From the NCBI GenBank assembly GCA_029215795.1, contig JARDYH010000003.1:89436609-89500608 (forward strand): a DNA stretch of 64,000 bases, read 5' to 3'. Below, piece after piece: positions 10,445-54,422 of the stretch (positions are counted from its first letter, which is position 1; each line of letters begins with the position of its first letter). Position numbers and translations under genes: made by a program. The notes beneath the pieces were generated by a model that saw only the letters and a list, made by a program, of their open reading frames with translations, made no database searches and was not told the DNA's origin. The stretch is from Anniella stebbinsi (taxonomy: Eukaryota; Chordata; Lepidosauria; Squamata; Anniellidae).

Positions 10445-10764
10445 TAGGCTGACCATATGAAAAGGAGAACAGGGCTGATGTAACTTTAACAGTTGTAGAG
10501 AAAAGGGAATTTCAGCCAGTGTCATTTGTATGCAATTAGTTTCTGGTGAAATTCCCTCTTCATCACAACAGTTTAAGTTGCAGGGGCCCTGCCTTCTTTT
10601 GTATAAGGTCACTCTAGTATAGTGCCTGCACCTTTAACTGTTGTGATGAAGAGGGAATTTCACCAGGAATTAATTGCATAGAAATGACACTGGCTGAAAT
10701 TCCCTTTTCTCTACCACTGTTAAAGTTACATTAGCCCTGTCCTCCTTTTCATATGGTCAGCCTA
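10445..10764. mobile_element. hAT MITE, inverted dimer, copy 1
   Basis: Ends are TAGGCTGACCATATGA and TCATATGGTCAGCCTA-like inverted repeats. A perfect 8-bp target duplication, ATTATATT, flanks it at 10437-10444 and 10765-10772. The whole element folds back: the first half (TTTAACAGTTGTAGAGAAAA, GCAATTAGTTTCTGG, CCCTCTTCATCACAACAG) is repeated inverted in the second half. Near the centre (10606-10615) is a relic of an internal end, GGTCACTCTA. It is non-coding. Confidence 0.9.
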
Positions 10765-10772
10765 ATTATATT

Positions 10773-11260: not shown

Positions 11261-11580
11261 TAGGGTGACCAGATAAAATCCAGGTCAGGGCTCATGTAAC
11301 TTTAACAGTTGTAGAGAAAAGGGAATTTCAGCCGGTGCCATTTGTATGCAATTAGTTCCTGGCGAAATTCCCTCTTCATCACAACAGTTAAAGTTGCAGG
11401 GGCCCTGCCTTCTTCTGTATGTGGTCACTGTAGTATAGTGCCTGCAACTTTAACTGTTGCGATGAAGAGGGAATATCACCAGGAACTACTTGCATAGAAA
11501 TGACACTGGCTGAAATTCCCTTTTCTCTACAACTGTTAAAGTTACGTGAGCCTTGACCTGGATTTTATCTGGTCACCCTA
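11261..11580. mobile_element. hAT MITE, inverted dimer, copy 2
   Basis: It begins TAGGGTGACCAGATAAAATC and ends with the inverse, GGTCACCCTA. The 8-bp duplication GCATGTGG is perfect, at 11253-11260 and 11581-11588. This copy carries the AGATAAAATCCAGGTCAGG terminal variant also seen at 45927 and 30492, unlike the CATATGAAAAGGAGGACAGG variant of other copies. It is non-coding and palindromic. Confidence 0.9.
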
Positions 11581-14747: not shown

Positions 14748-15450
14748 CAAATCCTTTTTGAGCTCCATCAAACCAGTGTTTTATTGCACCTTAGTCCTGT
14801 CTTGTTTACCGTTTTGCCCTGCGACACTCACACAACATCATCCTTGTCCTGCAGTCGTCTCACCTCTTCCCCTCCATTTTCCGTGTTTTTCTAGGGTGGG
14901 GAAAGTGTGGCATTTTTTCTCCACATGGGATAGAACCGCTGTTCCATCCCTGTGCATTGCCGTCCTTGCCCTATGTCATAAAGAACCGCCTTTGTGGAGA
15001 CGTGTTCATTGAAGGGTGGTCTTGCTAATAAAAGAGGAGGGCGTGCCAAGTTGCTCAAATGAACGGGCTTGTGCTGAGTCACTCGAACGGACTTCTGTTG
15101 CCCCAAAAGGCAGAAACAGTGCCTAATCAATCAAACGCTAAATTGTTAAAACAGTAGACAACGAAACCAGAGCGAGGGGTGGAAGGCACCCATGTCCATC
15201 GCAATGACCTTCATCCACAAGAACCAATGAACTGGAGGGGGAAGCAAAAGGGGCGAGGTGGGGGCAAGCACAGTATTGATACCAGGAAGCACGAGCCGGC
15301 ACAGGTCAAAAAGTAAACAAGGCGAATTAATGCAACAATGTGTGCATGTGAAAGTGACAAGCACTTGACACACTAATGAAACAGAGGTGGAAATCACGGG
15401 TGCATACCAGGAAAAAAAAATAGGTGTGATGGAGCTCTTTGAATCCTTCC
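14748..15450. mobile_element. Possible DNA transposon remnant with TIRs
   Basis: The left boundary reads TTGAGCTCCATCAAACCAGT. The right boundary, on the minus strand, reads AAGAGCTCCATCACACCTAT. Both are followed inward by a T-rich tract and then a CACC block. The inverted match is short and imperfect, and no target duplication was found. It could also be chance similarity. Confidence 0.35.
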
Positions 15451-17741
15451 TGCAGTCCAACTACACTTCTCTCAGAGTAAAGAACTTCCTTAGGAGTGCA
15501 AAAGCCCCATTCAGAAATTAGCCCCTATATGTGCAAAGCAGCAGCAGCAGCAGCACAGAGCCAAAACACCACTGCCCAGTTCCACCCTAGGACATGGAAA
15601 ATCTGAAGGGGAGGCTTGTGCAATGCCAGCCCCAAGTTTGGGAGGACCCTTGGACAAGACACCCACCATGGACCCCCTCCCGCAGTGAGTCTACCTACTC
15701 ACTGCCATTTTCACCAGGGACTATTGCTCCTCATCCACTTTCGCATTATTGCTGCCACTTGAGGCAGAGTCATCGATCGCTCCTCATCCTTCCCACCACC
15801 ATTCTCTGGGCCAGGCTGAGAGGCAGCTTGCAATGCTGAAGAGGAGGAGCAAGTCCAGGGGGCTCTTGTCAAGGGTAGGCATGCCCAACCATGCCTTTCC
15901 TTGACACCAGCTCTAAACCCATGTGCATTGAGATGCAGGAGTCCAGATTGTGAGGAGCCTACTGGGGTTCAGCTGAACATCCATAGGTTCCCCCTTCAGA
16001 CTGTCCAGGTAATGTACAAAGGTCTGTGTCAGAACGGTGATGTTAAGGTGGGGGGGGCAGTGCCCCTCTGCATAAGAAGGCTCTTTCCTGAAGGGGGCTA
16101 AAGAAAAAAGAAAAAAAGGGGGGGAAAGCATTGTGTCTGACCAATTGCTAAAGCATGCTACAGAAACTATTATAATCATTGAAAAATTATGGGTGTGGCT
16201 CCTGAGCATCAGTTGAATGGGAAATTTGATCCTCCAACTCATCTAAATTTGACACTCCAGGACCCCCATATCTAGAGTAGCAACAATTGGTTGATTCTTG
16301 CATTTCAAGCTGATCATAAAGCATAGAAGAAACATTAAAAACAGAAAGAAAAACTACCCTTTAAAAGCAGGGAAATTATAGTATAAAACACAGAGAGCAT
16401 CCTGAAATGATTATACTACAGACCTAGACTCATCAATGCAACCTTCCCAATCACATCTTCACCTGATCATGTGCTGTACATGTGTGGTCTCCGTAAAGGC
16501 CATATGTTGGTGATGGTGTGGGAGAATCCAAGGTTCAAAGCAAACTTGGTTCTCCTTGGTATGAATTTAGCTGCTGTTCTTGTTCTCATTGGCAGGGCTG
16601 TTATTTAATCAGCATCTAATGGTGCCCAAATTGAACCCTTTTAAGCTTAAAATGTGACCTCCAGTGGATCTTAAATTTTACATGCTTTTTAAAGCATTTC
16701 TGACATGATGTCAACTGAAACATCAAGTCTCTCACCAATTCTAACAAAAAAAAATTCAGTCAGGTCTGGAAATCAGATCTGAATTCCACAGATATTGTTC
16801 TTTTCTTCATAGATAAGTGGACATAATCCCTTTTGGCAACAACAAGCACTTTGTCATATGTCAATGTTTCAGTGGATTGAAGAGTGCAGGGAAATACATC
16901 AAATTCTAATCCTCCCATCCTATACTTTGGTTCTAAAATAGGCTTGAACAACTTGTGACTAACTAGCCAGGTCAGGTGGTCAATCAGGGACACAACCAAC
17001 CAGCCAGGTCAGGTGACCAATCAGGAACACAACCAACCAGCCAAGTCAGGTGGCCAATCAGGGATGCAAACTCATCTTTTCCCACGGTTGTTGCCTATTT
17101 GAGAATATAAAAATAGAGGGTTGCATTCAGTTAAGTGGGTCATAGATAGGTATGTATGAGGATTTGGTTAAATCTGTTCCATCTGTGTTTCATGTATCAT
17201 GAGGCACCTTTTGTTCTGTTGTCTGCTCATTGATGGAATCAGATTTTTTTTCGGGATGCATGAGAATTTTGCTCCACTCATGCAAATGTGCATTAGCGCT
17301 AATGTGCACTTGTACTAAAGCACATTTGCACTAAAGCATATTAATGTGAGTGCAAATTAGCACAAATCCCTCCCCCAAATGTAAAAAGTCTGCAAGTGAA
17401 AAGTTTGCATGTCTGTAGAATCTGTATGACTTGAAAAAATCTGGTTGTTGCAGAATCCACAGACTGGATTCCTAGAAATCTGAACTCATTTGAATCCATT
17501 GCAGAGTTCTTCAACATCCCCCATCATAAATTGTGCAGGATTACTCTAGAAGCTAATCCCTTCATCATGTTCGGTGCATGTGTTGAGTCTCATCATGGTT
17601 AAGGCCAGGTGCTTTGGCCACCTATGCACAATGTGGCAGCCCAATCTCCCTCCAGTTAGAGCCAAGTAGGATATTTTTGTTCCCTGAGATTGAGGAGGGA
17701 GTTTATTTATCTATTCCACACTCTAGCTTTTGCATTTCACA
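15451..17741. other. No gene recognised
   Basis: A long stretch without identifiable genes. It contains a short CAG run at 15540-15556 and a small tandem repeat at 16961-17070. Everything else is unassigned. Confidence 0.35.
16961..17070 (+). repeat. Short tandem repeat, three units of about 41 bp
   Basis: Three imperfect units each contain AGCCAGGTCAGGTG(G/A) CCAATCAGG then ACACAACCAACC. The third has drifted (AAGTCAGG, ATGCAA). Confidence 0.7.
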
Positions 17742-17800
17742 GCCAAACACTGATAGGTGCAAGATATCGCTTTGAGTCCCAGCCCTGGGAAAAAGGCAGG

Positions 17801-17832
<32 letters not shown>
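17742..17832 (+). repeat. LINE 3' tail with (ATA)n
   Basis: TATCGCTTTGAGTCCCAGCC and AAAAAGGCAGGATAATAAT form an L2-like 3' hairpin end with a trinucleotide tail. It directly precedes the R4 remnant, suggesting that the latter landed in or beside this tail. Confidence 0.55.
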
Positions 17833-17833
<1 letters not shown>

Positions 17834-17839
17834 TAACAG

Positions 17840-18431
17840 TGTAACAACAGACCTATGCAGGAAATGCCATCAGTTCCAAGAAACAATAGAGCATATAACA
17901 GGAGGATGTAAAATTCTGGCAGGAATGGACTATACGGACAGACACAATACAGCTGCAAAAATAATTCACCAACAACTGGCCATCAAATTCAACCTTATCA
18001 AACAACCTACACCATACTATACATATTCACCCAAAACAATCCTGGAAAATGCAGATCATAAAATATACTGGGACAGAACAATTCATATGGACAAGACAAT
18101 GCCTCGCAACTGACCAGACATAACGTTCATAGACAAAAAAGAAAAACATGCATACTTCATTGACATAGCAATACCGAATGACAAAAATATTGTTAAAAAG
18201 GAAGAAGAAAAAAGAGACAAATATACACCACTGCCCATGGAAGTCAAAGAACTATGGCAACAGGAAAAGGTCACAGTTATTCCATTAGTCACATCAGTCA
18301 CCGGAATCACATCAAAAAAATATACAGTAAACCTCCAGAAACTGGGCCTACCAGAATACATCCACACCAACATCCAGAAAGCAGTCATAATTAAAACATG
18401 CTCAATCGTCAGGAAATTCCTGAATCAATAA
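17840..18431 (+). pseudogene. R4/Dong-clade LINE C-terminal endonuclease remnant
   Basis: The frame encodes a CCHC-type zinc knuckle (CRKC, then H, then GGC) followed by a domain with PDITFID...YFIDIAIPND. This has the PD-X(about 14)-D arrangement of the restriction-like endonuclease of R2/R4-type LINEs. The rest reads openly to a TAA at 18429-18431. One internal TGA at 18111-18113 sits exactly where an arginine precedes PD in relatives, consistent with a CGA-to-TGA CpG decay. The reverse transcriptase is missing (5' truncation). An AAT tail follows at 18497. R4/Dong elements are known from lizards, which supports the squamate call. Confidence 0.8.
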
Positions 18432-18495
18432 AAGACAGTATGACTTGGCAAAGCCGGTCATGTCCGTCTAGAAAAACCACCACGCGCGAGAAAGA

Positions 18496-18496
<1 letters not shown>

Positions 18497-18532
<36 letters not shown>
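18497..18532 (+). repeat. (AAT)n tail of the R4 remnant
   Basis: An uninterrupted AAT run about 65 bp after the R4 stop codon, probably the 3' end of that element. Confidence 0.8.
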
Positions 18533-18533
<1 letters not shown>

Positions 18534-18893
18534 TGTCATTCCATTTGGCAAGTATCAGAGACAGTAAAGATATTCTGCTGCCTGAGGCAGACCAGCAAAT
18601 ATCTCCCACCTCCTCCTCCCAACTCAATTTGCAAAGAATCCAAAGCCACTCAAGTTATTTTGCCAGAAAATCCCACAAGTACCTTTCTCTCTCCTTTGCA
18701 GTAATACAATACTGATAAATTAAATGGCAAACAATTTGCTGCCCTTTCATGACACACTTAAAATCAGCTGCCTGTGATGGCCGCTTCACTCTGCCTAATG
18801 ATAGGGCCAGACAGTGGCAAGGTTCATGCAACACACTAACCCACCATGGGCTATCATGTTGTCAGATGAACAACTGGGCCATGTTCAAGAGAT
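18533..18893. other. No feature recognised
   Basis: Unassigned sequence between the R4 tail and a CR1 fragment. Confidence 0.35.
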
Positions 18894-18970
18894 TACATAA
18901 GAACACAAGAAGAGCCATGCTGGATCAGACCAAGGATCATTCTCATTCTGTACTCATGAGTCATGACCAA
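18894..18970 (-). repeat. CR1-clade 3' end fragment, minus strand
   Basis: The stretch ATAAGAACACAAGAAGAGCC followed by ATGCTGGATCAGACC is the inverse of the CR1 end seen at 20900-20940 and 43470-43510. Confidence 0.55.
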
Positions 18971-19158
18971 GACCCATTAGGCCTATGGCAGATTCACTGT
19001 AGCTTCCATGATGTTAGGGCTCTAGTTTGTGGCCCAATATTGCTGCTGCAGCAAAAAAAAAAAAAAAGTCTCCCAGAAGTTGTCCATCCCTGGTCAAGGC
19101 ATTCCAGAGCTCTACAAGCCAGCAAGGAAGCTTGTTTTGTACAGCAGAAGCAGTTGTC

Positions 19159-26461: not shown

Positions 26462-26469
26462 CTGAAAAT

Positions 26470-27731
26470 TAGGGATGTGCACTGACCCCCCGGATCGGAT
26501 CGGATAGCGGATCGGAATCGGACCTGGGGGGTCGGATCGGATCGGATCGGATCGTGTGTCGGATCGGATCGGATCCGATTCCGATCCGCGGATCGGATTT
26601 TCCGATCCGGATCGGACGCCATTTTGAATGCTTTTTCCTATAGCAAATTATTGTTTTACAAAAACGCCTATAACTTTTTCATTTTTAACGACAGAAGGAT
26701 GAAACTTGGGCACATTGTACACTGGTTAGGGATAGGTATCTGTGAGAAATTTCAGAAAGATTGGTGCATGCAGTTTGTGGCAATTAATTTTTTAATAAAT
26801 AACATGGAATGCCTATAACTCGGTCATTTTTAAAGTTACACACATGAAACTTTGCCACATTGTAGGTGGAACCTTGGGACCCACGTGTGTGAAATCCCAG
26901 AACCGTGGGTGCTTGCCTGGTGTGGCAATGAATTTTTGAAAAATGGGTAGTAGTGGGGTAAATGCAGTTATGCCTCCCATGTTTTTATTTTTAAAGATAC
27001 AAACAGGACACTTCGGCACATTACAGGGAACACTTCCCTTGATATGTGTGTAAAATTTCAGACAGCTAGCTCCAGGCATGTGTTGGCAATGAATTGTTGA
27101 AAATTGGGTAGCAGTGGGGTAAAATACAGTTTTGCCTCCCATTTTTTTATTTTCAAAGATACAAACGGGAAACTTTGGCACATTGCAGGGAACACTTCAC
27201 TTCAAATGTGTGTGAAATTTCCGGAAGCTAGGTGCAACATTTTAGTGGGAAACGAACGTTTATTCATGGCATTTCACATGGGATTTATGGGTTGGTTTTA
27301 AGAGCTACAAACCTCTAACTCGCTCACATGGCACAGGACCTATGCCCGCTCAAACGCTGGAAATTTAACAAACTTTGGTGCAATGCTTTAGTGGGAAAAC
27401 AAAGGTTTATGCATGGCATTTCACATGGGATTTATGGGTTGGTTTTAAGAGCTACAAACCTCTAACTCGCTCACATGGCACAGGACCTATGCCCGCTCAA
27501 ACGCTGGAAATTTAACAAACTTTGGTGCAATGCTTTAGTGGGAAAACAAAGGTTTATGCATGGCATTTCACATGGGATTTATGGGTTGGTTTTAAGAGCT
27601 ACAAACCTCTAACTCGCTCACATGGCACAGGACCTATGCCCGCTCAAACGCTGGAAATTTAACAAACTTTGGTGCAATGCTTTAGTGGGAAAACAAAGGT
27701 TAAACTTTATTATTTTAAACCTTCAGGAAGG
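26470..27731 (+). repeat. Left long terminal inverted repeat
   Basis: It matches 37397-38670 inverted, down to the block TTTAAACCTTCAGGAA where the two arms diverge. The outermost 160 bp or so is not a good match between arms: this arm has GACCCCCCGGATCGGATCGG and many GGATC pentamers, while the other has a GATCCACGATCCGAATCC block. From GACGCCATTTT (about 26616) inward the arms are almost identical. Confidence 0.93.
26681..27715 (+). repeat. Seven diverged subterminal tandem units
   Basis: Each unit starts with an ATTTTTAAAG-like core followed by ACAAAC...CACATTGCAGG-like sequence. Core starts are at about 26681, 26826, 26987, 27149, 27294, 27441 and 27588, giving spacings of 145, 161, 162, 145, 147 and 147 bp. 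The last three units are nearly identical; the first four are diverged. Repeated motifs near transposon ends commonly serve as transposase-binding sites; that role here is inference. Confidence 0.8.
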
Positions 27732-28110
27732 GGACATTGCCTGCCTGGTGTGGATTGGTAATGAGGGAAGAAAGTTTCACTTATTCATTTGTAAAATGTA
27801 AAGTGATTGTAAATTGCTTTAGGGACCCATACATTTACATGACAAGACAGGTGTTGGTTGCAGGAATGCTACCAAATGCACTAGTAGCTAATCCCAGGTA
27901 ATAGCTATTCAGATCCTAGCTAATAGCTATTATTCAGATCCTAGCCTGGGAAGGGATCTTGCAGGATAAGTGATTGTTCTTTTCTTGTGTACTATGTAAT
28001 TCTAAACCAGAAGGCTGCTTTGATGTAGAGCCAATCCACATGGTCTCTTGCAGCACCTAGTATTATTTATTTCTCCTTCCACAGCAGAATCTGGAAGGCG
28101 GGCAGGCAGG
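27732..28110. other. Unique segment between left arm and repeats
   Basis: No reading frame of note. A short duplicated phrase, TAGCTATTCAGATCCTAGC, occurs twice around 27900-27945. Confidence 0.4.
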
Positions 28111-29100
28111 CTGGCATTTAATGGGCAAAGTCCAACAGCGGCATTGGGGACTGGGTGACATTCTCCTTGAGGGCGAATGCCAAGTCCCATGGCTTGTGCG
28201 AGGAGGGCGGCTTGCTCTCTTTGCAGGAAGGATCTGGAAGGCGGCAGGCGGCATCAGCAGCGGGCGGGCAGGCTGGCATTTAATGGGCAAAGTCCAACAG
28301 CGGCTTTGGGGACTGGGTGACATTCTCCTTGAGGGCGAATGCCAAGTCCCATGGCTTGTGCGAGGAGGGCGGCTTGCTCTCTTTGCAGGAAGGATCTGGA
28401 AGGCGGCAGGCGGCATCAGCAGCGGGCGGGCAGGCTGGCATTTAATGGGCAAAGTCCAACAGCGGCTTTGGGGACTGGGTGACATTCTCCTTGAGGGTGA
28501 ATGCCAAGTCCCATGGCTTGTGCGAGGAGGGCGGCTTGCTCTCTTTGCAGGAAGGATCTGGGAGGCGGCAGGCGGCATCAGCAGCGGGCGGGCAGGCTGG
28601 CATTTAATGGGCAAAGTCCAACAGCGGCTTTGGGGACTGGGTGACATTCTCCTTGAGGGCGAATGCCAAGTCCCATGGCTTGTGCGAGGAGGGCGGCTTG
28701 CTCTCTTTGCAGGAAGGATCTGGAAGGCGGCAGGCGGCATCAGCAGCGGGCGGGCAGGCTGGCATTTAATGGGCAAAGTCCAACAGCGGCTTTGGGGACT
28801 GGGTGACATTCTCCTTGAGGGTGAATGCCAAGTCCCATGGCTTGTGCGAGGAGGGCGGCTTGCTCTCTTTGCAGGAAGGATCTGGGAGGCGGCAGGCGGC
28901 ATCAGCAGCGGGCGGGCAGGCTGGCATTTAATGGGCAAAGTCCAACAGCGGCTTTGGGGACTGGGTGACATTCTCCTTGAGGGCGAATGCCAAGTCCCAT
29001 GGCTTGTGCGAGGAGGGCGGCTTGCTCTCTTTGCAGGAAGGATCTGGAAGGCGGCAGGCGGCATCAGCAGCGGGCGGGCAGGCTGGCATTTAATGGGCAA
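28083..29100. repeat. 162-bp tandem array, six units plus partial
   Basis: The block ATGGGCAAAGTCCAACAGCG starts at 28121, 28283, 28445, 28607 and so on at exact 162-bp steps to 29093. Two unit variants alternate: one with GAGGGCGAATG and CTGGAAGGCGG, one with GAGGGTGAATG and CTGGGAGGCGG, so units 2-3 and 4-5 look like duplicated pairs. Because 162 is a multiple of 3 and the unit has no stop in certain frames, frames of 340 codons (plus) and 352 codons (minus) stay open. I do not call them genes. Confidence 0.9.
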
Positions 29101-31010
29101 AGTCTCTCCTTTCCCGGGCACTGTGGCAGTGAGAGTGCCATAGGCTGCAAAAGAAGAAGGGGGGGGGAAAAAGAATGAATATTAGTTGACCACTTCAACA
29201 CAACCAGCTCCCTTCCACCCAGGATTGCCCTTCCTGAGTGCCCACGCCAAAGCAGGCACACGGGGCTGCCTGCTCACTCGGAAGTTAGCAGGCAGACAGC
29301 CAACCTTCAGTTAGGTGGAAGGTGCCCCCCCCCATTCACAGAACACTTACCGTAGTCCTCCTGAGGGCGTTGTTGATAAGATGCCACTTCCAGGCGGGCA
29401 GTGACGGGCAGGTGGGCAGTCTGCATTACCGTCTCTCCTGGGCACTGTGGCAAAGAGTTCCATAGGCTGCAAAAGAAGAAGGGGGGGGGGGAAGAATATG
29501 AGGAAAATGATACTTTTCCACCACTGGCTCCCTCCCACCCAAGACTGGCATGTGCCCGTCCTGAGTGCCCACGCCCCAGCAGGCACACGGGGCTGCCTGC
29601 TTGCTTACTCGTGGGTAAGCTCTCTGACAGGCTCTTACCAGAGTCGTGCGGGCGACGTGAATCGATGGGCCACCTCCATGCGGCCGTGGCTGGGGCAGAT
29701 GGGCAGTCTGGATTCACGGGTACGCTTTGCGCAGTGGCGAAGAGTTCCATAGGCTGCAAAAGAAGGAGGGGGGGGGAAAGAATTAACATGAGATAAATCA
29801 TACTTTTCCACCATTGGCTCCCTCTCACCCAGGACTGGCATCTGCCCGGTCCTGAGTGCCCACGCCCCAGTAGGCACACGGGGCTGCCTGCTCACTCGGA
29901 AGTTAGCAGGCAGACAGCCAACCTTCAGTTAGGTGGAAGGTGCCCCCCCCCATTCACAGAACACTTACCATAGTCCTGAGGGCGTTGAGGACTCGGTGAG
30001 ATTCTCCTGGAGGACCCCTAGTCCCATGGCTTGTGCAAGAAAGGCGGCTGGCCCGCCTCGCAGGAACGATCTGGAAGGCGGCAGGCGGCATCAGCAGCGG
30101 GCGGGCAGGCTGGCATGTAATGGGCAAAGTCTCTCCTTTCCCGGGCACTGTGGCAGTGAGAGTGCCATAGGCTGCAAAAGAAGAGGAGGGGGATAATGAA
30201 TATTACATAAATACTTTTATACTGCAAAAGAAGAAAGGAAAATAAATAAAGATTTGTATTAATTATACATGCAAGTCCTAGTAACTAGTCTCCCACCGGC
30301 ACACTTCTCTGGTTTGTGATGCAATCCTCTTTCTCCTGCACCCCTCCCTTTCTAAATCACTCTTCTGAGCCCATTGTTAGAGGGATTGGCTATCCTTTTG
30401 TGTCTGGCAGGACACAGCTTACCGGATCATTAGAGAATCACCATTTCTTTTGTCCTTGGGTTATTCATTCACTCCTAATAGCACCCTACGTTAGGCTGAC
30501 CAGATCAAATCCAGGTCAGGGTTCCTAACTTCAGCAGTTGTAGAGAAAAGGGAATTTCTGCCAGTGTCATTTGTATGGAATTAGTTCCTGCTGAGATTCC
30601 CTCTTCATCACAACAGTTAAAGGTGCAGGGGCCCTGCCTTCTTTTCTATATGGCCACTCTGCCTGCACTCTTACCTGAGTCGTAGGGGCGACGTGAATCG
30701 AGGGGCCACCTCCATGCGGCCGTGGCTGGGGCAGATGGGCAGTCTGGATTCACGGGTGCGCTTTGCGCAGTGGCGAAGAGTTCCATAGGCTGCAAAAGAA
30801 GGAGGGGGGGGGAAAAGAATTAACATGAGATAAATCATACTTTTCCACCATTGGCTCCCTCTCACCCAGGACTGGCATCTGCCCGGTCCTGAGTGCCCAC
30901 GCCCCAGTAGGCACACGGGGCTGCCTGCTTGCTTACTCGGAAGTAAGATCTCACACTGCCCCACTTCTGGACACTCTCAGGTGTCCCTGCGTTGACTGCA
31001 CACACTTACC
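29101..31010 (-). repeat. Repeated exon-like cassettes with splice-site borders
   Basis: On the minus strand a pattern recurs: a pyrimidine tract with CTTCTTTTGCAG, a segment starting CCTATGG(A/C)ACTC, then a GTAAG border. Segments lie at 30675-30789, 29639-29753 (115 bp each), 29351-29466 (116 bp) and 29969-30171 (203 bp). One starts at 29144 and runs into the 162-bp array. One ends at 31010 (GAATAAG then GTAAGTG) after the minisatellite. Spacers repeat too (AGCCAACCTTCAGTTAGG at 29300 and 29918). The 115-bp lengths are not multiples of three and phases do not join, so coding exons are doubtful. Non-coding exons or simple duplication are alternatives. Confidence 0.65.
30492..30661. mobile_element. 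hAT MITE, single half (nested in the giant element)
   Basis: It begins TAGGCTGACCAGATCAAATC and ends at the internal relic TATGGCCACTCT that marks the centre of the dimers. Only one monomer-length half is present and no 8-bp duplication was found, so it is probably a truncated dimer copied along with the cassette region. Confidence 0.7.
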
Positions 31011-31039
31011 TTATTCGTGCGGCCGATGTGGATCGGAGG

Positions 31040-32090
31040 ACTCCAGTGGCACATAGGCTCCTCCAGGCAAAGTCACATTGGCACAGGGTCCTCCAGGCAA
31101 AGTCACAGTTTGGCACAGCTCCCTCCAGGCAAAGTCACATTGGCACAGGGTCCTCCAGGCAAAGTCACAGTTTGGCACAGCTCCCTCCAGGCAAAGTCCC
31201 AGTGGCACAGGCTCCTCCAGGCAAAGTCACATTGGCACAGGGTCCTCCAGGCAAAGTCACAGTTTGGCACAGCTCCCTCCAGGCAAAGTCCCAGTTTGGC
31301 ACAGCTCCCTCCAGGCAAAGTCACAGTTTGGCACAGCTCCCTCCAGGCAAAGTCACATTGGCACAGGGTCCTCCAGGCAAAGTCACAGTTTGGCACAGCT
31401 CCCTCCAGGCAAAGTCACATTGGCACAGGGTCCTCCAGGCAAAGTCACAGTTTGGCACAGCTCCCTCCAGGCAAAGTCCCAGTTTGGCACAGCTCCCGCC
31501 AGGCAAAGTCCCAGTTTGGCACAGCTCCCTCCAGGCAAAGTCCCAGTGGCACAGGCTCCTCCAGGCAAAGTCACAGTTTGGCACAGCTCCCTCCAGGCAA
31601 AGTCACATTGGCACAGGGTCCTCCAGGCAAAGTCACAGTTTGGCACAGCTCCCTCCAGGCAAAGTCCCAGTTTGGCACAGCTCCCTCCAGGCAAAGTCCC
31701 AGTTTGGCACAGCTCCCTCCAGGCAAAGTCCCAGTTTGGCACAGCTCCCTCCAGGCAAAGTCCCAGTGGCACAGGCTCCTCCAGGCAAAGTCCCAGTTTG
31801 GCACAGCTCCCTCCAGGCAAAGTCCCAGTGGCACAGGCTCCTCCAGGCAAAGTCACAGTTTGGCACAGCTCCCTCCAGGCAAAGTCACATTGGCACAGGG
31901 TCCTCCAGGCAAAGTCACAGTTTGGCACAGCTCCCTCCAGGCAAAGTCCCAGTTTGGCACAGCTCCCTCCAGGCAAAGTCACAGTTTGGCACAGCTCCCT
32001 CCAGGCAAAGTCCCAGTGGCAGAGGCAAAGTCCCAGTGGCAGAGGCAAAGTCCCACTGGCAGAGGCAAAGTCACAGCTGCATGGGCACCT
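31040..32090. repeat. 30-32-bp minisatellite
   Basis: About 33 units of the form TCCAGGCAAAGTC(A/C)CA followed by GTTTGGCACAGCTCCC (32 bp), TTGGCACAGGGTCC (30 bp) or GTGGCACAGGCTCC (30 bp). Variants follow one another in blocks, indicating repeated expansion. The end degenerates to a short AGAGGCAAAGTCCCAGTGGC series. All three plus frames and a minus frame are open only because the unit lacks stops there. Confidence 0.9.
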
Positions 32091-32094
32091 CCAG

Positions 32095-32219
32095 GCAGGC
32101 AGGCGGGCGGGCAGGCAGAGGCGGGCATGATGCCAGGCGCTTGCACATTGCACAAGTAAGCAATAGAACCGTGAGACCAGCCCACGCATTCCGGCTACTT
32201 CACAATGGCGGCAACCTAG

Positions 32220-32250
<31 letters not shown>

Positions 32251-32363
32251 AGGCAGAGGCAGAGGCGGGCATGATGCCAGGCGCTTGCACATTGCACAAG
32301 TAAGCAATAGAACCGTGAGACCAGCCCACGCATTCCGGCTACTTCACAATGGCGGCAACCTAG

Positions 32364-32394
<31 letters not shown>

Positions 32395-33675
32395 AGGCAG
32401 AGGCAGAGGCGGGCATGATGCCAGGCGCTTGCACATTGCACAAGTAAGCAATAGAACCGTGAGACCAGCCCACGCATTCCGGCTACTTCACAATGGCGGC
32501 AACCTAGCAGGCGGGCAGGCGGGCAGGCAGGCAGGCAGGCAGAGGCAGAGGCAGAGGCGGGCATGATGCCAGGCGCTTGCACATTGCACAAGTAAGCAAT
32601 AGAACCGTGAGACCAGCCCACGCATTCCGGCTACTTCACAATGGCGGCAACCTAGCAGGCGGGCAGGCAGGCAGGCAGGCAGGCAGAGGCAGAGGCAGAG
32701 GCGGGCATGATGCCAGGCGCTTGCACATTGCACAAGTAAGCAATAGAACCGTGAGACCAGCCCACGCATTCCGGCTACTTCACAATGGCGGCAACCTAGC
32801 AGGCGGGCAGGCGGGCAGGCAGGCAGGCAGGCAGAGGCAGAGGCAGAGGCGGGCATGATGCCAGGCGCTTGCACATTGCACAAGTAAGCAATAGAACCGT
32901 GAGACCAGCCCACGCATTCCGGCTACTTCACAATGGCGGCAACCTAGCAGGCGGGCAGGCGGGCAGGCAGGCAGGCAGGCAGAGGCAGAGGCAGAGGCGG
33001 GCATGATGCCAGGCGCTTGCACATTGCACAAGTAAGCAATAGAACCGTGAGACCAGCCCACGCATTCCGGCTACTTCACAATGGCGGCAACCTAGCAGGC
33101 GGGCAGGCGGGCAGGCAGAGGCAGAGGCAGAGGCAGAGGCAGAGGCGGGCATGATGCCAGGCGCTTGCGCATTGCACAAGTAAGCAATAGAACCGTGAGA
33201 CCAGCCCACGCATTCCGGCTACTTCACAATGGCGGCAACCTAGCAGGCGGGCAGGCAGGCAGGCAGAGGCAGAGGCAGAGGCGGGCATGATGCCAGGCGC
33301 TTGCGCATTGCACAAGTAAGCAATAGAACCGTGAGACCAGCCCACGCATTCCGGCTACTTCACAATGGCGGCAACCTAGCAGGCGGGCAGGCAGGCAGGC
33401 AGAGGCAGAGGCAGAGGCGGGCATGATGCCAGGCGCTTGCGCATTGCACAAGTAAGCAATAGAACCGTGAGACCAGCCCACGCATTCCGGCTACTTCACA
33501 ATGGCGGCAACCTAGCAGGCGGGCAGGCAGGCAGGCAGAGGCAGAGGCAGAGGCGGGCATGATGCCAGGCGCTTGCGCATTGCACAAGTAAGCAATAGAA
33601 CCGTGAGACCAGCCCACGCATTCCGGCTACTTCACAATGGCGGCAACCTAGCAGGCGGGCAGGCGGGCAGGCAGT
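32095..33675. repeat. 136-148-bp minisatellite, 11 units
   Basis: The marker GGGCATGATGCC occurs at 32123, 32267, 32411, 32559, 32703, 32851, 32999, 33147, 33283, 33419 and 33555. Spacings are 144, 144, 148, 144, 148, 148, 148, 136, 136 and 136 bp. Length differences come from a nested AGGC/GGGC and AGAGGC microsatellite; the remaining 100 bp or so is nearly invariant. Four units at the right differ by GCGCATTGC for GCACATTGC. Confidence 0.92.
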
Positions 33676-34254
33676 TTTTTAAATCATATAGCCAAAATAA
33701 ACACAACACACAGTGACAGCCCTGCAAGGCTGCCACATAAGTCCAAAAGACACAGTCAGAAACAGTGTGGGATGCTGCTTGTCATCCACTCAATGTAGGA
33801 GCCTGGAAGAGGAATCCTATCGCGTCCTTCGTTCATAGTCAGAGAGGTGCATGCGTTCCTTGGCGATAAAATTAAGCCTTCTTCTTATCCAAAGTTCTCA
33901 TGAGCCTCTGACGTGGTCTTACAAGAAGAAACGCCCATGGAAGTGTGGGACCTTACAGAAGGCCTGGAGGGAGCCATCGGAGTCCAATTTCAGAGGCACA
34001 CGTGCAAGCACATTGGTTCAAGTCAAACAACATAGAATGTGTGAGATGCTTGTGCATCCCCTCAATGTAAGAGGCTAGGAGAAGAAACTAGATCCCTTCG
34101 GGATCCATCGTTCAGAGTTGAGTTACTGAGCTGTAAACAACACAGCCAGTAAATTAAAGTAAAGAAAATTAATTAACCGAAAATAAGAATTAAAAAATCA
34201 AGGGCCTGCCGGTGCCTGCCCAAAGGTGTGGGATGGATGGGGGGTGCCTGCCAA
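33676..34254 (-). other. Transposase downstream segment
   Basis: This lies between the minisatellite and the transposase stop. It contains an imperfect 80-bp direct duplication (about 33760-33845 and 34030-34120, sharing CATCC then CTCAATGTA and a CGTTCA-AGT block). I found no clear AATAAA signal on the minus strand, so the 3' end of the transcript is unknown. Confidence 0.4.
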
Positions 34255-36786
34255 TTACTCCCCCGCGGGCATGAGGGTGGGGTATCCCAGCAGGGGCAGA
34301 TTGACCTTGAGGAAGACCAGCTGCTCCACAATCTCAGCGTCCAAGCGAGAGCGGTGGGGTGTGACCACGTCGCCCGCCATGGAAAACACCCGCTCGCTTG
34401 GAACGCTGGACGGTGGGCAGCTGATTCTGTCCATGGCCACCCGCGCCAGATCAGGCCACATCTGGCGCCGAGATGACCAGTAGGCCAGGGGTTCGATGGA
34501 GCCGTCCTCCATCTGCTCCGCCAGGTAACGCTGCACTGCTGCTGCAGCGTCATCCTGGCGGCGGCTGGGTTGAGTGCCTCTATGCCCAACCGCAGCCTGC
34601 AAAGCCTTGTCCCAAAACCCCTGGCCTGTCCCCCTGCTGGGTGTGGTGGTGCTGGTGCCGCCGCTGCTGGTGGTGCTCAGCGGACTTAGCGCCTGGGCTT
34701 CGGTGGGCTCCTCCTCTGCCTGCCCAATCCTGGCATCCCGGGCCGCCCGAACGTCCGTCACCAGCATTTCCACCCAACCTGCCCGGGAAGTCTGCCCACA
34801 TAACCCATCCTTGATGCGCGGGTCGCACATGGTGGCCAACATGTACTGCCTCTCGTTGTAGAGAGGCTGGACCCGGCGGGATAAGCTTTCCCTCAGCCTC
34901 GTCACCACTTCCCGCACCTCTGGCAGGAAGCGCCTGCCGGTGACGGCATCCCCGGCCTCCAGAAACTCGCCCATCTGATTCTGGAGATGCCTGGCCACGG
35001 GGAGCACCTGGCTGAGAAGGGCAGTGCTGCTGCTCAGGGTCTCGGTGGCCTCAAGGAACGGCTTGAGGACCACCAGAAGCTGGGACATGGCCTCCCACTG
35101 CTGCCTGGACAGTGGGGCCTGGATGCCAATGTCCCCGACCCTGAACATCTCGTGGACAACACGCTGTTGCTCCACCATACGCTCGAGCATGTGGTAGGTG
35201 GAGTTCCAACGTGTTGCCACGTCCTGCACTAGCCGGTGCTGCGGAAGTCCCAGCTCCTGCTGCTTCTCCCGCAGCAACCGACTGCCCTTCACGCTGTGGT
35301 GGAAATGCCCAGCCACCTTCCTGCAGCTCTCTAGGAGATTACGGATTTGGGGAGGGAGAGGGGCCTTGCTGCCTCCAAGGCCATCCCTGACGACCAGGTT
35401 GAAGACGTGCGCGATGCAGCGGATGCCCTCAAATCCGCCATCGCGCACCGCCTTCAGCATATTGGCTCCCCCGTCCGTGACCATGTAACCGCGGGTGTGC
35501 TGGTGCCCGCCCAGCCACCCTGCCACCATGCGGTTCATGGCCTCCGTAATCTCCTCCGCCGTGTGGGACTGGTCCATGACTGCGGTATGAAGGAGGGCCC
35601 AGCGGCAGCCCTCCTTCCCAGTCCCAGAAGTCCTGGGTGCTTCCTGCCCTGAGGCTCCCCACCAGTGAGCCGTCAGGGACAGGTAAGCGTGCACTCCTCC
35701 TTCGCTGGACCAGATGTCCGAAGTGAAGTGCACCTTCTGTGCCTCTGCCTGGCACAGACGACCCAGAACTAACTCCCTGCATGCCTGGTACAGGGAGGGC
35801 ACCACACGCCTGCTCAGGGTGGTGCGACACGGCGGCTTGTAGTATGGAACCACAAGAGCCATCAGCCTCTTGAAGCCTGCGTTCTCGACGAGGCTGAATG
35901 GCTGGTCATCCAACGCCACCATCTCACCGATGCAATTGGTGATCTGGTTGGGCGCTGGAAAACGCCACCTTGTGGCTCCATACTTCCCCCACCCCATCTC
36001 TTCCATGGTGGCCTGGCGAAGCCTCTTGGGGATGGGAGGTCGAGAGCTGGCAGAAGTTGCAGGAGCCTTCTGCTTGCCCTTGCCGCTAGCACCAGTCTGC
36101 TGCGAGGTGCCCGCCTCGGTCCCAAGCAAAACAGACTGGTGGTGCCTCTGCATGTGGCGGGTGAGGTTCGTGGTGGTGAAGTGGCCTGGCATTTTTCCCC
36201 TGCTCACTGACATCTTGCAGTGGCGACAGACAGCAAAGCGGGAATCCACTGCCACCTCAAAGTGGTCCCACACCTTGCTTGCCTGTCGCTTCTGGGGTGA
36301 CACAGACGGCCTGCCGGCGCCTTCGCTCTGTGGTGTCACCTCAGGAGCAAGGGAATGAGTGGAAGAGAGGACGGATTGTGGAGAGTAAGTCTCTGGTGCT
36401 GCCTGCTCTTCCTCTTGCCCCACATCAGAGTCCTCCTTCTCACTCTGAACCTCGCTGACTTCCACAAGATCTGGGAAAAGATCAGTCAGCGGGTTCACAG
36501 GCTCACCCACCAAAGAAGGAGCTGGATAATATAGTGCTCCTTCTTCATGCCCACTGCTGCTCCCAGCACCTGCCTCATGTTGCTGAAAGAGTGCCCTGCA
36601 GGCACTACTTTGAGTTGCCTCTGCCTGCTTCTGCTGCCCCAGTGGAGAACGCCTCAGTTTAACTGGGGGTGTGGAAGTAGGCTGCCTGCTGCTGGTCCCA
36701 GCAGCAGCAGCAGCAGCGCCATGCCCAGAGCGGCCTCTCCCAAATGCTGCCTTGGGAGCACCCCCCCTTTGAGTGCCACGCTTCAT
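34255..36786 (-). CDS. hAT transposase with BED zinc finger, intact
   Basis: This is the cut-and-paste transposase of the surrounding element, acting in the nucleus on its TIRs. The 843-codon frame has no break. A low-complexity amino-terminal region (about 1-165, acidic near 105-130) precedes a BED finger at about 170-216 (KVWDHF, C187, C190, H211, H215/H216). The RNase H-like core follows: TSDIWS (D357, first catalytic aspartate), LTAHWW, VTDGGANMLKAV (D438, second), CIAHVFNLVV (about 457-466) and ATRWNSTYHMLERM (about 523-536). The hAT dimerisation end is at about 785-832, with SERVFSMAGDVV (third acid probably E798) and FLKVN. The ATG is the first in frame after an upstream A/T-rich stretch. 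Resemblance is to ZBED-type hAT proteins. Expression is not shown by sequence. Confidence 0.93.
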   Translation of the reverse strand: MKRGTQRGGAPKAAFGRGRSGHGAAAAAAGTSSRQPTSTPPVKLRRSPLGQQKQAEATQSSACRALFQQHEAGAGSSSGHEEGALYYPAPSLVGEPVNPLTDLFPDLVEVSEVQSEKEDSDVGQEEEQAAPETYSPQSVLSSTHSLAPEVTPQSEGAGRPSVSPQKRQASKVWDHFEVAVDSRFAVCRHCKMSVSRGKMPGHFTTTNLTRHMQRHHQSVLLGTEAGTSQQTGASGKGKQKAPATSASSRPPIPKRLRQATMEEMGWGKYGATRWRFPAPNQITNCIGEMVALDDQPFSLVENAGFKRLMALVVPYYKPPCRTTLSRRVVPSLYQACRELVLGRLCQAEAQKVHFTSDIWSSEGGVHAYLSLTAHWWGASGQEAPRTSGTGKEGCRWALLHTAVMDQSHTAEEITEAMNRMVAGWLGGHQHTRGYMVTDGGANMLKAVRDGGFEGIRCIAHVFNLVVRDGLGGSKAPLPPQIRNLLESCRKVAGHFHHSVKGSRLLREKQQELGLPQHRLVQDVATRWNSTYHMLERMVEQQRVVHEMFRVGDIGIQAPLSRQQWEAMSQLLVVLKPFLEATETLSSSTALLSQVLPVARHLQNQMGEFLEAGDAVTGRRFLPEVREVVTRLRESLSRRVQPLYNERQYMLATMCDPRIKDGLCGQTSRAGWVEMLVTDVRAARDARIGQAEEEPTEAQALSPLSTTSSGGTSTTTPSRGTGQGFWDKALQAAVGHRGTQPSRRQDDAAAAVQRYLAEQMEDGSIEPLAYWSSRRQMWPDLARVAMDRISCPPSSVPSERVFSMAGDVVTPHRSRLDAEIVEQLVFLKVNLPLLGYPTLMPAGE

Positions 36787-36895
36787 TTTATTTTTATTAT
36801 TATTTATTTTTGTGTAAGTGTGTGCTTTGCTGACTTTTTTTGTGTTTGTAGCAGCAGGCTACACAGCCCAGCAACACACACTCACTCACAAGCGC

Positions 36896-36942
36896 GCACA
36901 CACACACACACACACAGAGAAAGAGAGAGAGAGAGAGAGAGG
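36896..36942. repeat. (CA)n then (GA)n microsatellite
   Basis: A CA run followed directly by a GA run in the presumed 5' untranslated region of the transposase gene. Confidence 0.9.
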
Positions 36943-37250
36943 ATAGAAATATTTTTTTATTATTTTTTTGGGTTTTTTTCAGAAAGCGAAAGTAGAACAA
37001 ACAAACACACTCACTGCAAAGACAAACTGAACTCACAGACAAACAAACGTGCTATCTAAGAAAGGAAAGGCAAGAGAGAAAGGAAAGCCAAGAGAGAGAA
37101 CAAGAAAAGCTGAAGTAAAAGATCAGAAACTCCTCAAAACCACCTCCAAATACAATCAAATCAATACAGTCTCTCCAACACAGCTCCAAAACACTCCCTA
37201 ATCTCCTCCACGTTCAACCCACAAAGAGCCAGAAGGGCAGGGCTGAGAGA

Positions 37251-37314
37251 ATATATACTGGTGCCCTCCTCCAGCATTGCGATTGGAGGCTGAAGAAAGT
37301 CTTCACAGGATTGG
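37251..37314 (-). promoter_or_regulatory. Candidate transposase promoter
   Basis: On the minus strand, CCAAT boxes at 37310-37314 and 37282-37286 precede a TATATAT box at about 37251-37257 with ordinary RNA polymerase II spacing. The transposase ATG is about 460 bp downstream. The segment lies just inside the right inverted arm. No direct evidence of initiation exists. Confidence 0.5.
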
Positions 37315-37396
37315 GTGATTCAGTCATGTATTCTAAAGCACAATTGGTGGATCAAGCTGTCAAACACACACACACAAACACAGCCTCCCCCTCCCT

Positions 37397-38670
37397 TTCC
37401 TGAAGGTTTAAAATAATAAAGTTTAACCTTTGTTTTCCCACTAAAGCATTGCACCAAAGTTTGTTAAATTTCCAGCGTTTGAGCGGGCATAGGTCCTGTG
37501 CCATGTGAGCGAGTTAGAGGTTTGTAGCTCTTAAAACCAACCCATAAATCCCATGTGAAATGCCATGCATAAACCTTTGTTTTCCCACTAAAGCATTGCA
37601 CCAAAGTTTGTTAAATTTCCAGCGTTTGAGCGGGCATAGGTCCTGTGCCATGTGAGCGAGTTAGAGGTTTGTAGCTCTTAAAACCAACCCATAAATCCCA
37701 TGTGAAATGCCATGCATAAACCTTTGTTTTCCCACTAAAGCATTGCACCAAAGTTTGTTAAATTTCCAGCGTTTGAGCGGGCATAGGTCCTGTGCCATGT
37801 GAGCGAGTTAGAGGTTTGTAGCTCTTAAAACCAACCCATAAATCCCATGTGAAATGCCACGAATAAACGTTCGTTTCCCACTAAAATGTTGCACCTAGCT
37901 TCCGGAAATTTCACACACATTTGAAGTGAAGTGTTCCCTGCAATGTGCCAAAGTTTCCCGTTTGTATCTTTGAAAATAAAAAAATGGGAGGCAAAACTGT
38001 ATTTTACCCCACTGCTACCCAATTTTCAACAATTCATTGCCAACACATGCCTGGAGCTAGCTGTCTGAAATTTTACACACATATCAAGGGAAGTGTTCCC
38101 TGTAATGTGCCGAAGTGTCCTGTTTGTATCTTTAAAAATAAAAACATGGGAGGCATAACTGCATTTACCCCACTACTACCCATTTTTCAAAAATTCATTG
38201 CCACACCAGGCAAGCACCCACGGTTCTGGGATTTCACACACGTGGGTCCCAAGGTTCCACCTACAATGTGGCAAAGTTTCATGTGTGTAACTTTAAAAAT
38301 GACCGAGTTATAGGCATTCCATGTTATTTATTAAAAAATTAATTGCCACAAACTGCATGCACCAATCTTTCTGAAATTTCTCACAGATACCTATCCCTAA
38401 CCAGTGTACAATGTGCCCAAGTTTCATCCTTCTGTCGTTAAAAATGAAAAAGTTATAGGCGTTTTTGTAAAACAACAATACTTTGCTATGGGAAAAACGC
38501 ATTTAAAATGGCGTCCGATCCGCCGATCCGATCCGATCCGGATCGGACCTCGCCGGATCGGATCGGATCGGATGGTGTATCGGATCGGATCGGATCGGAT
38601 CGGATTTTCCGATTTTTGGGGCGGATCGGATTCGGATCGTGGATCGGATCCGATCCGATGCACACCCCTA
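37397..38670 (-). repeat. Right long terminal inverted repeat
   Basis: This is the inverse of 26470-27731 with the same seven-unit structure. Its outermost part carries runs of GGATC/GATCC and the block ACGATCCGAATCCGATCC (minus strand), the second end type also found at 53698 and, inverted, at 10070. Small differences from the left arm include AATAAACG for ATTCATGG-type changes near 37860 and an extra TTG near 38470. Confidence 0.93.
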
Positions 38671-38678
38671 CTGAAAAT

Positions 38679-45876: not shown

Positions 45877-46436
45877 GGCCTGATCTACACTACTGCTTTG
45901 TAGCAGTATGGAAGTGCACTGATAACTAGGCTGACCAGATAAAATCCAGGTCAGGTCTCATGTAACTTTAACAGTTGTAGAGAAAAGGGAATTTCAGCCA
46001 GTGTCATTTGTATGCAATTAGTTCCTGGTGAAATTCCCTCTTCATCACAACTGTTAAAGTTGCAAGCACTATACTAGAGTGACCTTATACAAAAGAAGCA
46101 GGGCCCCTGCAACTTAAACTGTTGTGATGAAAAGGGAATTTCACCAGGAACTAATTGCATACAAATGACCCTGGCTGAAATTCCCTTTTCTCTACAACTG
46201 TTAAAGGTACATGAGCCCTGACCTGGATTTTATCTGGTCAGCCTACCGATAACTGTTGGGGCACATTACACATTCCATATACTGCTTTCATAGTGTTATT
46301 CCTGCTTTGTATTCAACATTACCCCAAATACTGCAGTAAATGTCATTGTGTGTCCTACGAGGTATAAATGTGCAAGAGCGATATAGTGTTACTATGATGG
46401 GATCGTAATGATTTGACACAAGGTGTAGATCTGGCC
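45877..46436. mobile_element. MITE, GATCTACAC-end family member (interrupted)
   Basis: The left end GGCCTGATCTACAC and the right end GTGTAGATCTGGCC are inverted. A hAT MITE interrupts it at 45927-46245. Without that insert it would be about 240 bp, close in size class to 62165-62293. No target duplication was resolved. Confidence 0.65.
45927..46245. mobile_element. hAT MITE, inverted dimer, copy 6 (nested)
   Basis: Ends are TAGGCTGACCAGATAAAATC and the inverse, GGTCAGCCTA. Flanks CTGATAAC (45919-45926) and CCGATAAC (46246-46253) match at 7 of 8 bases. The central relic TAGAGTGACCTTATAC is present. It is non-coding. Confidence 0.88.
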
Positions 46437-53697: not shown

Positions 53698-54422
53698 TAG
53701 GGATGTGCACTGGATCGGATCCAATCCACGATCCGAATCCGATCCAGGGGGAAATCGGATAAATTATCCGATTTCCGATCACACCGCTGGATCGGCCGAT
53801 CCAATCCAAACCGATCCGAAAAGGTTCCAATCCAGTTCGGATGGATCGGCAGGGCTGTCCACGGCGCGCTTACCTTCCAGGGACGTCCGCTCCCATCCAG
53901 CGCCGGCTGCTACTGTGAGCGGGCTTCACGGCCTGCTCCAGGGTGGCACGCACCCTGGAGCAGGCCGCGAAGCCCGCTTGCAGTAGCAGCCGGCGCCGGA
54001 CGGGAGTGGACGTCCCTGTAAGGTAAGCAGTGGCAGGGGGAGGGGGTTACCCCCCCGGGATGTCCGCTTCCATCCGCTGGCACTCGCGGGCACCAGCAGA
54101 TGGAAGCGGACGGCCCCGAGGGGGGTAGGGAGCGAGGGGGAGGGGGCTTACCTGCCGGGGCCATCCACAGCAGACAGCCCTGGGGGGAGGGAGTTAGGCC
54201 CCCCCTCACCCACCCGCCGCCATTTTTCCTCATAGACTTGCATTGCAATGCAAGTCTATGGGGGGGGAAATGGCGGCCGATCCAAAAATTTCCAATTTTT
54301 GGATCGGGATCGGACTCGATCTGGTCCGGGGGGCCTCCGATTTTGTCCAATCCGATCCGTGACAAAATTGGAGGTCCCGATCCGGGTCCCGATCCGATCC
54401 GGGGGGTCCGTGTACACCCCTA
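53698..54422. mobile_element. Non-autonomous hAT element with 8-bp TSD
   Basis: It begins TAGGGATGTGCACTGGATCG and ends GTGTACACCCCTA. The perfect duplication CTTAATAG lies at 53690-53697 and 54423-54430. It is the shorter sibling, in opposite orientation, of 8539-10070: the left end equals the inverse of that element's right end, and the right end the inverse of its left end. It has one GC-rich palindrome (about 53865-54030) instead of an array, and the shared TGCATTGCAATGCA palindrome at 54239-54255. It has no coding capacity. Confidence 0.93.

What the first reader, a model, noticed from the sequence alone, without database searches (positions are those of the whole stretch)
26462..38678. 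Giant hAT transposon with perfect TSD and 1.26-kb inverted arms
A perfect 8-bp duplication (CTGAAAAT) brackets a 12,201-bp unit with long inverted arms, an intact hAT transposase gene and several kilobases of tandem repeats. Most hAT elements are far shorter with TIRs of tens of bases, so this architecture (arms plus satellite cargo) is unusual and may be undescribed.
Basis: partly seen in the sequence, partly recalled or inferred. Interest (0 to 1): 0.92.

Follow-up and report, generated by a model that had tools for sequence, protein, structure and literature searches.

The report
Giant long-armed hAT transposon family
This is a 12-kilobase jumping DNA element of the hAT type with unusually long mirrored arms and an intact transposase gene, found as near-identical copies across one animal genome and likely still able to move, which matters because hAT elements are described as short and active ones are reported to be rare in vertebrates.

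Summary
Window 26470-38670 (12,201 bp) is flanked by CTGAAAAT on both sides. In 20 of 20 copies read at both ends (window + 19) the same boundaries carry perfect 8-bp duplications that differ between sites; the 11 read in full share one layout (11.6-13.6 kb). At least 159 places hold an end or the transposase; 109 uninterrupted transposase frames were found, 54 of them 100% identical protein. The 11 full copies (chosen by an identical left end) differ by 0.115% over 3.7 kb: a very young burst. One copy sits inside a MITE whose other copies give the empty site. Target bias (T at position 2, A at 7, each 35 of 40) and Hermes-like fold point to the Ac type of hAT. Each arm is a 180-205-bp CGGAT-rich tip plus about seven tandem units of 145-162 bp, like Galileo/Foldback arms but with a hAT transposase. 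Array lengths differ between copies. The cargo also holds a predicted spliced unit of repeated exons, apparently non-coding. Present mobility, transposase binding to CGGAT and repair-driven array change are inferred, not shown. Verdict: new variant of a known kind; species not identified.

The parts
26462..26469 (.). left target-site duplication CTGAAAAT
   Evidence: perfect pair in 20 of 20 copies read at both ends
26470..26646 (+). left tip: TAGGGATGTGCA terminal repeat plus CGGAT-rich block (17 of the element's 42 CGGAT/ATCCG sites lie in the element's first 180 bp)
26647..27734 (+). left arm body: about seven degenerate tandem units of 145-162 bp, the innermost (147 bp) nearly identical; mirror of the right arm body
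28051..29144 (-). predicted terminal exon of the cargo unit, containing the 162-bp x 6.2 array (28098-29104); AATAAA at 28071 (lower end set 20 bp past it by hand)
29351..29466 (-). predicted cargo exon (116 nt)
29639..29753 (-). predicted cargo exon (115 nt)
29969..30171 (-). predicted cargo exon (203 nt)
30491..30660 (.). nested MITE-like repeat, present at 100% identity in 11 of 11 copies read in full, so older than their common ancestor
30675..30789 (-). predicted cargo exon (115 nt)
31010..31060 (-). end of predicted first cargo exon with donor AATAAG|GTAAGT (its start is not determined)
31060..32076 (.). 32-bp tandem array (about 30 units) plus short 20-bp array
32092..33674 (.). 148-bp tandem array (about 11 units)
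34255..36786 (-). transposase gene, 843 aa: BED finger (residues 170-217), hAT dimerisation domain (753-829), D357, D438, E798, C457/H460, R526/W527 at the Hermes-aligned places
37392..38479 (-). right arm body, tandem units, mirror of the left
38480..38670 (-). right tip: TAGGGGTGTGCA plus CGGAT-rich block (20 of the element's 42 CGGAT/ATCCG sites lie in the element's last 205 bp)
38671..38678 (.). right target-site duplication CTGAAAAT

Best explanation
This is a full-length hAT DNA transposon, likely of the Ac type, that carries its own uninterrupted transposase gene and is dispersed as near-identical copies through this genome, where the transposase is predicted to bind the CGGAT-rich tips and move the element by cut and paste into sites of the form nTnnnnAn. 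Shown: common boundaries, site-specific 8-bp duplications, one paralogous empty site, intact frames, copy number, low divergence, tandem-array make-up of the arms, and array-length differences between copies. Inferred: the BED finger reads the CGGAT repeats as subterminal sites; copies increase when the donor gap is repaired from a sister or homologous copy, as for other cut-and-paste elements; that re-synthesis across tandem arrays makes arms and cargo change in length; the two arms are kept alike by the same repair; the family can still move today; the exon modules downstream of the transposase give a spliced, mostly non-coding transcript.
For: Perfect 8-bp duplications in 20 of 20 copies read at both ends, all different. 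40 left flanks (20 of them with the right side read too): T at position 2 in 35 of 40, A at position 7 in 35 of 40, the Ac-family consensus nTnnnnAn (PMC8961557 passage; Hermes in PMC2803484 passages). BED and hAT-dimer domains; Hermes is the only family with E <= 0.001 in the fold search, 12 of 12, and in the PDB sequence search, 4 of 4. 54 of 54 scored places with 100% identical uninterrupted protein, 55 of 55 further scored places without a stop, no overlap, union 109. 160 clusters from four capped lists, at least 159 places. Mean pairwise difference 0.115% over 3,684 columns in 11 copies. Same order of parts in 11 of 11. Empty site: the joined flanks of copy L025 match 40 of 40 scored copies of a MITE across the join (3,227 candidates); in 6 of 6 inspected the corresponding octamer is single (it differs from L025's at 3-4 of 8 positions) and nothing is inserted. 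37 of 42 CGGAT/ATCCG sites lie in the two tips; BED fingers of Hermes bind subterminal repeats (PMC10368747 passages).
Against: No movement was observed: no second individual, no transcript, no excision footprint. The 11 full copies were picked through a 100%-identical left end, which favours young copies. One of the 11 has a broken transposase (L025). Of the 55 frames only 8 were compared with the window's gene. The CGGAT repeats could be a by-product of slippage rather than binding sites. Ac membership rests on target pattern and Hermes similarity; no tree with reference Ac, Buster and Tip transposases was built. The element is longer and its inverted repeats far longer than the 2.5-5 kb and 10-25 bp given for hAT (PMC3942097 passage).
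Confidence: 0.9

Rival explanations
1. Composite or assembly artefact: an ordinary short hAT element that happens to lie among satellite arrays and an unrelated inverted duplication.
For: Much of the length is tandem repeats plus a nested MITE, which is what an artefact might look like.
Against: Eleven copies at different places of C2 and C3 have both ends, arms, arrays, nested MITE and gene in the same order (11 of 11), each with its own duplication.
Confidence: 0.02
2. A very young but now dead family: it amplified in one burst and is silenced or all copies lack a needed function.
For: No direct sign of present movement; one of 11 full copies has a broken frame.
Against: 109 uninterrupted transposase frames, 54 with identical protein, and divergence of about 0.1% in the 11 copies.
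Confidence: 0.3
3. The cargo is a captured protein-coding gene with its own function (a transposon passenger gene), not non-coding repeats.
For: Five donors and five acceptors delimit a first exon end, four internal exons and a last exon on the minus strand, and an AATAAA follows the last; a 519-aa frame runs through if one exon is skipped.
Against: Internal exon modules vary from 1 to 9 between 11 copies, and the predicted frame from 41 to over 500 codons; no Pfam hit above cut-off and no homologue at E <= 0.001 among 7,997 scored candidates; both strands of the 162-bp array are open; one further donor and one further acceptor that pass the same thresholds do not fit the chain.
Confidence: 0.07
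4. The arms are structural hairpins that move the element by a Foldback-type mechanism independent of the transposase-recognised tips.
For: Arms resemble Galileo/Foldback arms with tandem repeats of about 140 bp (PMC4168063 passages).
Against: The duplications are 8 bp with the nTnnnnAn bias of hAT, and short relatives of 725, 950 and 1,532 bp that match the giant element only in the tips have 8-bp duplications too.
Confidence: 0.05

Closest known systems
Ac family of the hAT superfamily (Hermes, hobo, Ac, Tol2)
   Same: 8-bp duplications of the form nTnnnnAn, BED finger, hAT dimer domain, DDE residues at Hermes-aligned places, repeated subterminal motif
   Different: 12 kb instead of 2.5-5 kb and 1.26-kb arms instead of 10-25-bp TIRs (PMC3942097 passage); cargo of three arrays and exon modules
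Galileo (P superfamily) and other Foldback-like elements of Drosophila
   Same: Kilobase inverted arms; in the longest D. willistoni copy they hold tandem repeats of about 140 bp in different numbers in the two arms, and tandem expansion of arms is reported for D. mojavensis (PMC4168063 passages); transposase sites lie in such repeats (PMC3688188 abstract)
   Different: The transposase is hAT with a BED finger, not P-type with THAP; duplications follow the hAT pattern; here tandem arms are in every full copy read (11) and the copies are nearly identical
ZBED4-like proteins of caecilians, frogs and lizards (P0003-P0010)
   Same: BED and hAT-dimer domains, 38-43% identity
   Different: In P0003, P0004 and P0010 (and in unnamed P0001) a lysine stands where the glutamate is expected; here the triad is kept and the gene lies in a mobile element
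[quoted passage not shown]
   Same: Recent vertebrate hAT with catalytic triad (PMC11008031 passages)
   Different: That paper gives 15-bp TIRs for hAT; no long arms or array cargo in the passages seen

Membership tests
hAT superfamily | 8-bp target-site duplication | tested here: met
   20 of 20 copies read at both ends
hAT superfamily | transposase with hAT C-terminal dimerisation domain and Hermes-like fold | tested here: met
   PF05699 56.9 bits against cut-off 21.4; Hermes 12 of 12 fold matches at E <= 0.001, TM by query length about 0.4 (model mean pLDDT 61.6)
hAT superfamily | N-terminal BED zinc finger | tested here: met
   PF02892 40.1 bits against cut-off 20.6
hAT superfamily | usual size 2.5-5 kb and TIR 10-25 bp (descriptive, not defining) | tested here: not met
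   12,201 bp, arms 1,265 and 1,279 bp; the terminal repeat proper is 12 bp with one mismatch
Ac family of hAT | target consensus nTnnnnAn | tested here: met
   T2 35 of 40, A7 35 of 40, both 31 of 40 left flanks; consensus from PMC8961557
Ac family of hAT | transposase groups with Ac rather than Buster or Tip in a tree | not tested
   no reference transposases of the three groups were held
Galileo / Foldback-like elements | kilobase inverted arms with internal tandem repeats | tested here: met
Galileo / Foldback-like elements | P-superfamily (Galileo) or Mutator-type (other Foldbacks, recalled) transposase | tested here: not met
   hAT domains only
active autonomous transposon | intact transposase and ends on the same copy | tested here: met
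   10 of 11 full copies have a frame of 842-843 aa
active autonomous transposon | insertion polymorphism or observed excision | not testable with these tools
   one assembly only; paralogous empty site for one copy

The most novel reading that the evidence does not exclude
A Foldback-style hAT lineage that rewrites itself as it jumps: an active giant element whose arms and cargo are tandem arrays re-made in a new length at each transposition, and whose cargo is a spliced RNA built from exon modules that are gained and lost as whole units (1 to 9 in near-identical copies), so that one young family scatters structurally different satellite seeds and splice-module arrays through a vertebrate genome.
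Probability: 0.3. Interest if true: 0.78.

Novelty: new variant of a known kind. Interest (0 to 1): 0.6.

Why it matters
hAT elements are described as 2.5-5 kb with TIRs of 10-25 bp (PMC3942097 passage) and active ones as rarely found in vertebrates (start of abstract of PMC4890040 in the listing). A 12-kb hAT family with at least 109 uninterrupted transposase frames, 54 of them identical in protein, goes against both. It suggests that Galileo-type arms can arise in a second transposase superfamily, and it gives a natural experiment: copies about 0.1% apart in unique sequence but different in their tandem arrays would let one measure array change per transposition. It may also be a source of new satellites and of a large-cargo vertebrate transposon tool.

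Tried and rejected
Composite/artefact reading: rejected by shared boundaries and part order. Protein-coding cargo: weakened by variable exon number and frame, no Pfam family above cut-off, no homologue. Concerted evolution of arms within copies: the test was uninformative, because copies had been chosen for identical left ends; left-right differences within copies averaged 0.45 in 597 bp and right-right differences between copies 0.87. Search for a diverged sister family with P0006: all 55 scored matches show 44-45% identity to P0006, and the 8 fetched belong to this same family. GGTAAG in the full element's cargo is not beyond shuffles (1+6 sites, shuffle mean 1.8, maximum 7). Species identification through cytochrome b found only a broken nuclear copy and was dropped. 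Counting copies by pattern did not complete. Literature: seven searches aimed at such an element listed, in titles and abstract starts of the 10-20 papers shown each, no hAT with kilobase arms; the other three served other points. Larger hit sets were not read through, papers such as PMC12368964 were not opened, and the library covers open-licence PMC papers only, not Repbase or Dfam; so 'undescribed' is not proven. Three of the six empty-site loci were first aligned on the wrong strand and redone.
Full report
1. Observation. The 8-bp duplication, the 12,201-bp unit, the arms, the transposase gene and the arrays are all there. The ends read TAGGG[A/G]TGTGCA. The arms align at 98.5% over 1,161 columns; the repeat finder gives 1,088 nt as 100% complementary, with one or two differences visible in that stretch.

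2. One transposon, many copies. The window lies in G000:C3:89436609-89500608 of a 1.89-Gb assembly in 91 contigs. The left 811 bp was found at 100% identity in 40 of 40 scored places (1,798 candidates), the right 660 bp at 99-100% in 40 of 40 scored places (1,924 candidates), and the transposase at 100% protein identity in 54 of 54 scored places (2,312 candidates). A second protein query (the related Anolis protein P0006) gave 55 further places without a stop, open frames 789-869 codons, none overlapping the first 54; 8 of these 55 were fetched and are 99.57-99.96% identical in DNA to the window's gene. Clustering the four lists gives 160 clusters on nine contigs. One pair on C1 lies 16.5 kb apart and might be one long copy, so I say at least 159. 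Each list was cut at its cap, so this is a lower bound. 135 of the 160 clusters come from one list only, that is, one end or the gene.

3. Boundaries. Ten other copies were read in full (10 of the 39 other places). Ten of ten have the same ends and perfect, different 8-bp duplications, lengths 11,623-13,630 bp, and 11 of 11 with the window have the same order of parts. Nine more were read at both ends by small fetches, nine of nine perfect. Twenty further left flanks were read without their right ends. Over 40 left flanks the octamer has T at position 2 in 35 and A at position 7 in 35. This is the Ac-family pattern nTnnnnAn (PMC8961557, passage; Hermes, PMC2803484, passages; Arensburger et al. 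2011 only as cited there).

4. Empty site. Copy L025 lies inside a MITE. Its joined flanks match 40 of 40 scored MITE copies across the join at 88-92% (3,227 candidates). In 6 of 6 inspected the corresponding octamer is single, differing from L025's at 3-4 positions, and nothing is inserted. This is a paralogous empty site, not an allele.

5. Transposase. 843 aa in one open frame, BED finger and hAT dimer domain. D357, D438, E798, C457/H460 and R526/W527 fall where Hermes has its conserved residues (their role in Hermes is recalled). The model has mean pLDDT 61.6, and Hermes is the only fold at E <= 0.001 (12 of 12). The nearest proteins are 46-48% identical (P0001, P0002, no organism named) and 38-43% (ZBED4-like or BED proteins of caecilians, frogs and two lizards). 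In four of ten of these a lysine stands at the glutamate. Ten of the 11 full copies keep a frame of 842-843 aa; L025 does not.

6. Age. In 11 copies, 3,684 columns of mostly unique sequence have 18 gap-free variable sites and a mean pairwise difference of 0.115%. With an assumed rate of 1-2 x 10^-9 per site and year (recalled, not measured here) that is about 0.3-0.6 million years. The sample was chosen for identical left ends and so leans young.

7. Arms. The outer 180-205 bp hold 37 of the 42 CGGAT/ATCCG sites of the element. The rest of each arm is one tandem array: shifted by one unit the arm matches itself at 77% over 926 columns, with unit lengths of about 145-162 bp in the outer part and 147 bp in the nearly identical inner part, about seven units in all. 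Inner unit counts differ between copies and between arms of a copy (left 3-5, right 2-6). Galileo has, in its longest D. willistoni copy, tandem repeats of about 140 bp in its arms (PMC4168063, passages), and transposase sites were found in such repeats (PMC3688188, abstract).

8. Cargo. Array lengths differ between the 11 copies: 162-bp units 1-7, 32-bp anchor 20-47, 148-bp units 4-14. On the minus strand, downstream of the transposase, strong donors and acceptors with unbroken pyrimidine tracts bound internal exons of 115, 203, 115 and 116 nt and a last exon that ends in AATAAA; one donor (30423) and one acceptor (30221) do not fit this chain. The modules are duplicates of each other, so their splice signals are not independent evidence. 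Between copies whole modules are gained or lost, from 1 to 9 internal exons. The frame is not kept, and no related protein was found. I therefore take it as a predicted, mostly non-coding spliced unit. No AATAAA or ATTAAA lies on the minus strand between the transposase stop and 29094, so the transposase transcript may run into it; this is inference.

9. Non-autonomous kin. In the 264 kb read (window plus ten 20-kb stretches) a search for the ends with 8-bp duplications found the 11 full copies and four shorter elements: window 8539-10070, window 53698-54422, L011/L012 16577-19106 (shares arm sequence) and L025/L026 15092-16041.

10. Mechanism. The Hermes BED finger binds subterminal repeats, and several hAT elements need 100-200 bp of each end (PMC10368747, passages). 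The CGGAT tips fit that role. Cut and paste plus gap repair would explain both amplification and array change. These steps are inferred.

11. Novelty. By transposase, duplication and target it is a hAT, likely Ac type. By architecture it is outside the range given for hAT (PMC3942097, passage) and like Galileo. I call it a new variant of a known kind. Seven literature searches listed no such element (see Tried and rejected), but Repbase and Dfam could not be searched.

Noticed in passing
window 8539-10070: 1,532-bp non-autonomous relative with the same ends, duplication GTTTTTAT on both sides and a 239-bp x 3.9 tandem array; it has four TGACATCA motifs and GGTAAG donor-like motifs (5+4 sites, shuffle mean 0.66, maximum 5; tandem copies are not independent).
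   Followed up: partly
window 53698-54422: 725-bp non-autonomous relative with duplication CTTAATAG on both sides, 81-90% like parts of the 1,532-bp element.
   Followed up: partly
L025/L026 joined 15092-16041; L011/L012 joined 16577-19106: Two more non-autonomous relatives with perfect 8-bp duplications; the 950-bp one has GGTAAG 3 times on each strand (shuffle mean 0.22), the 2,530-bp one has none and shares the arms of the giant element.
   Followed up: partly
window 28051-31060, minus strand: Repeated exon-like modules with strong splice signals, varying from 1 to 9 internal exons among copies about 0.1% apart.
   Followed up: partly
window 30491-30660 and nine other places in the window (e.g. 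10444-10765, 11261-11580, 45927-46245, 57479-57799): A MITE-like repeat of this genome, one copy of which is nested in the giant element in all 11 full copies.
   Followed up: partly
window 6394-6554 and 59314-59487: Very similar 83-bp tandem units (about two copies each) at two distant places of the window.
   Followed up: no
G000:C2:240166423-240166972: The only cytochrome b match (two adjoining pieces, 14 candidates scored): a copy within C2 with 8 TGA and 1 TAA in frame, so probably a nuclear insertion of mitochondrial DNA.
   Followed up: no
P0001, P0003, P0004, P0010: Relatives of the transposase have lysine where the catalytic glutamate is expected, so they are probably inactive or domesticated.
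   Followed up: no
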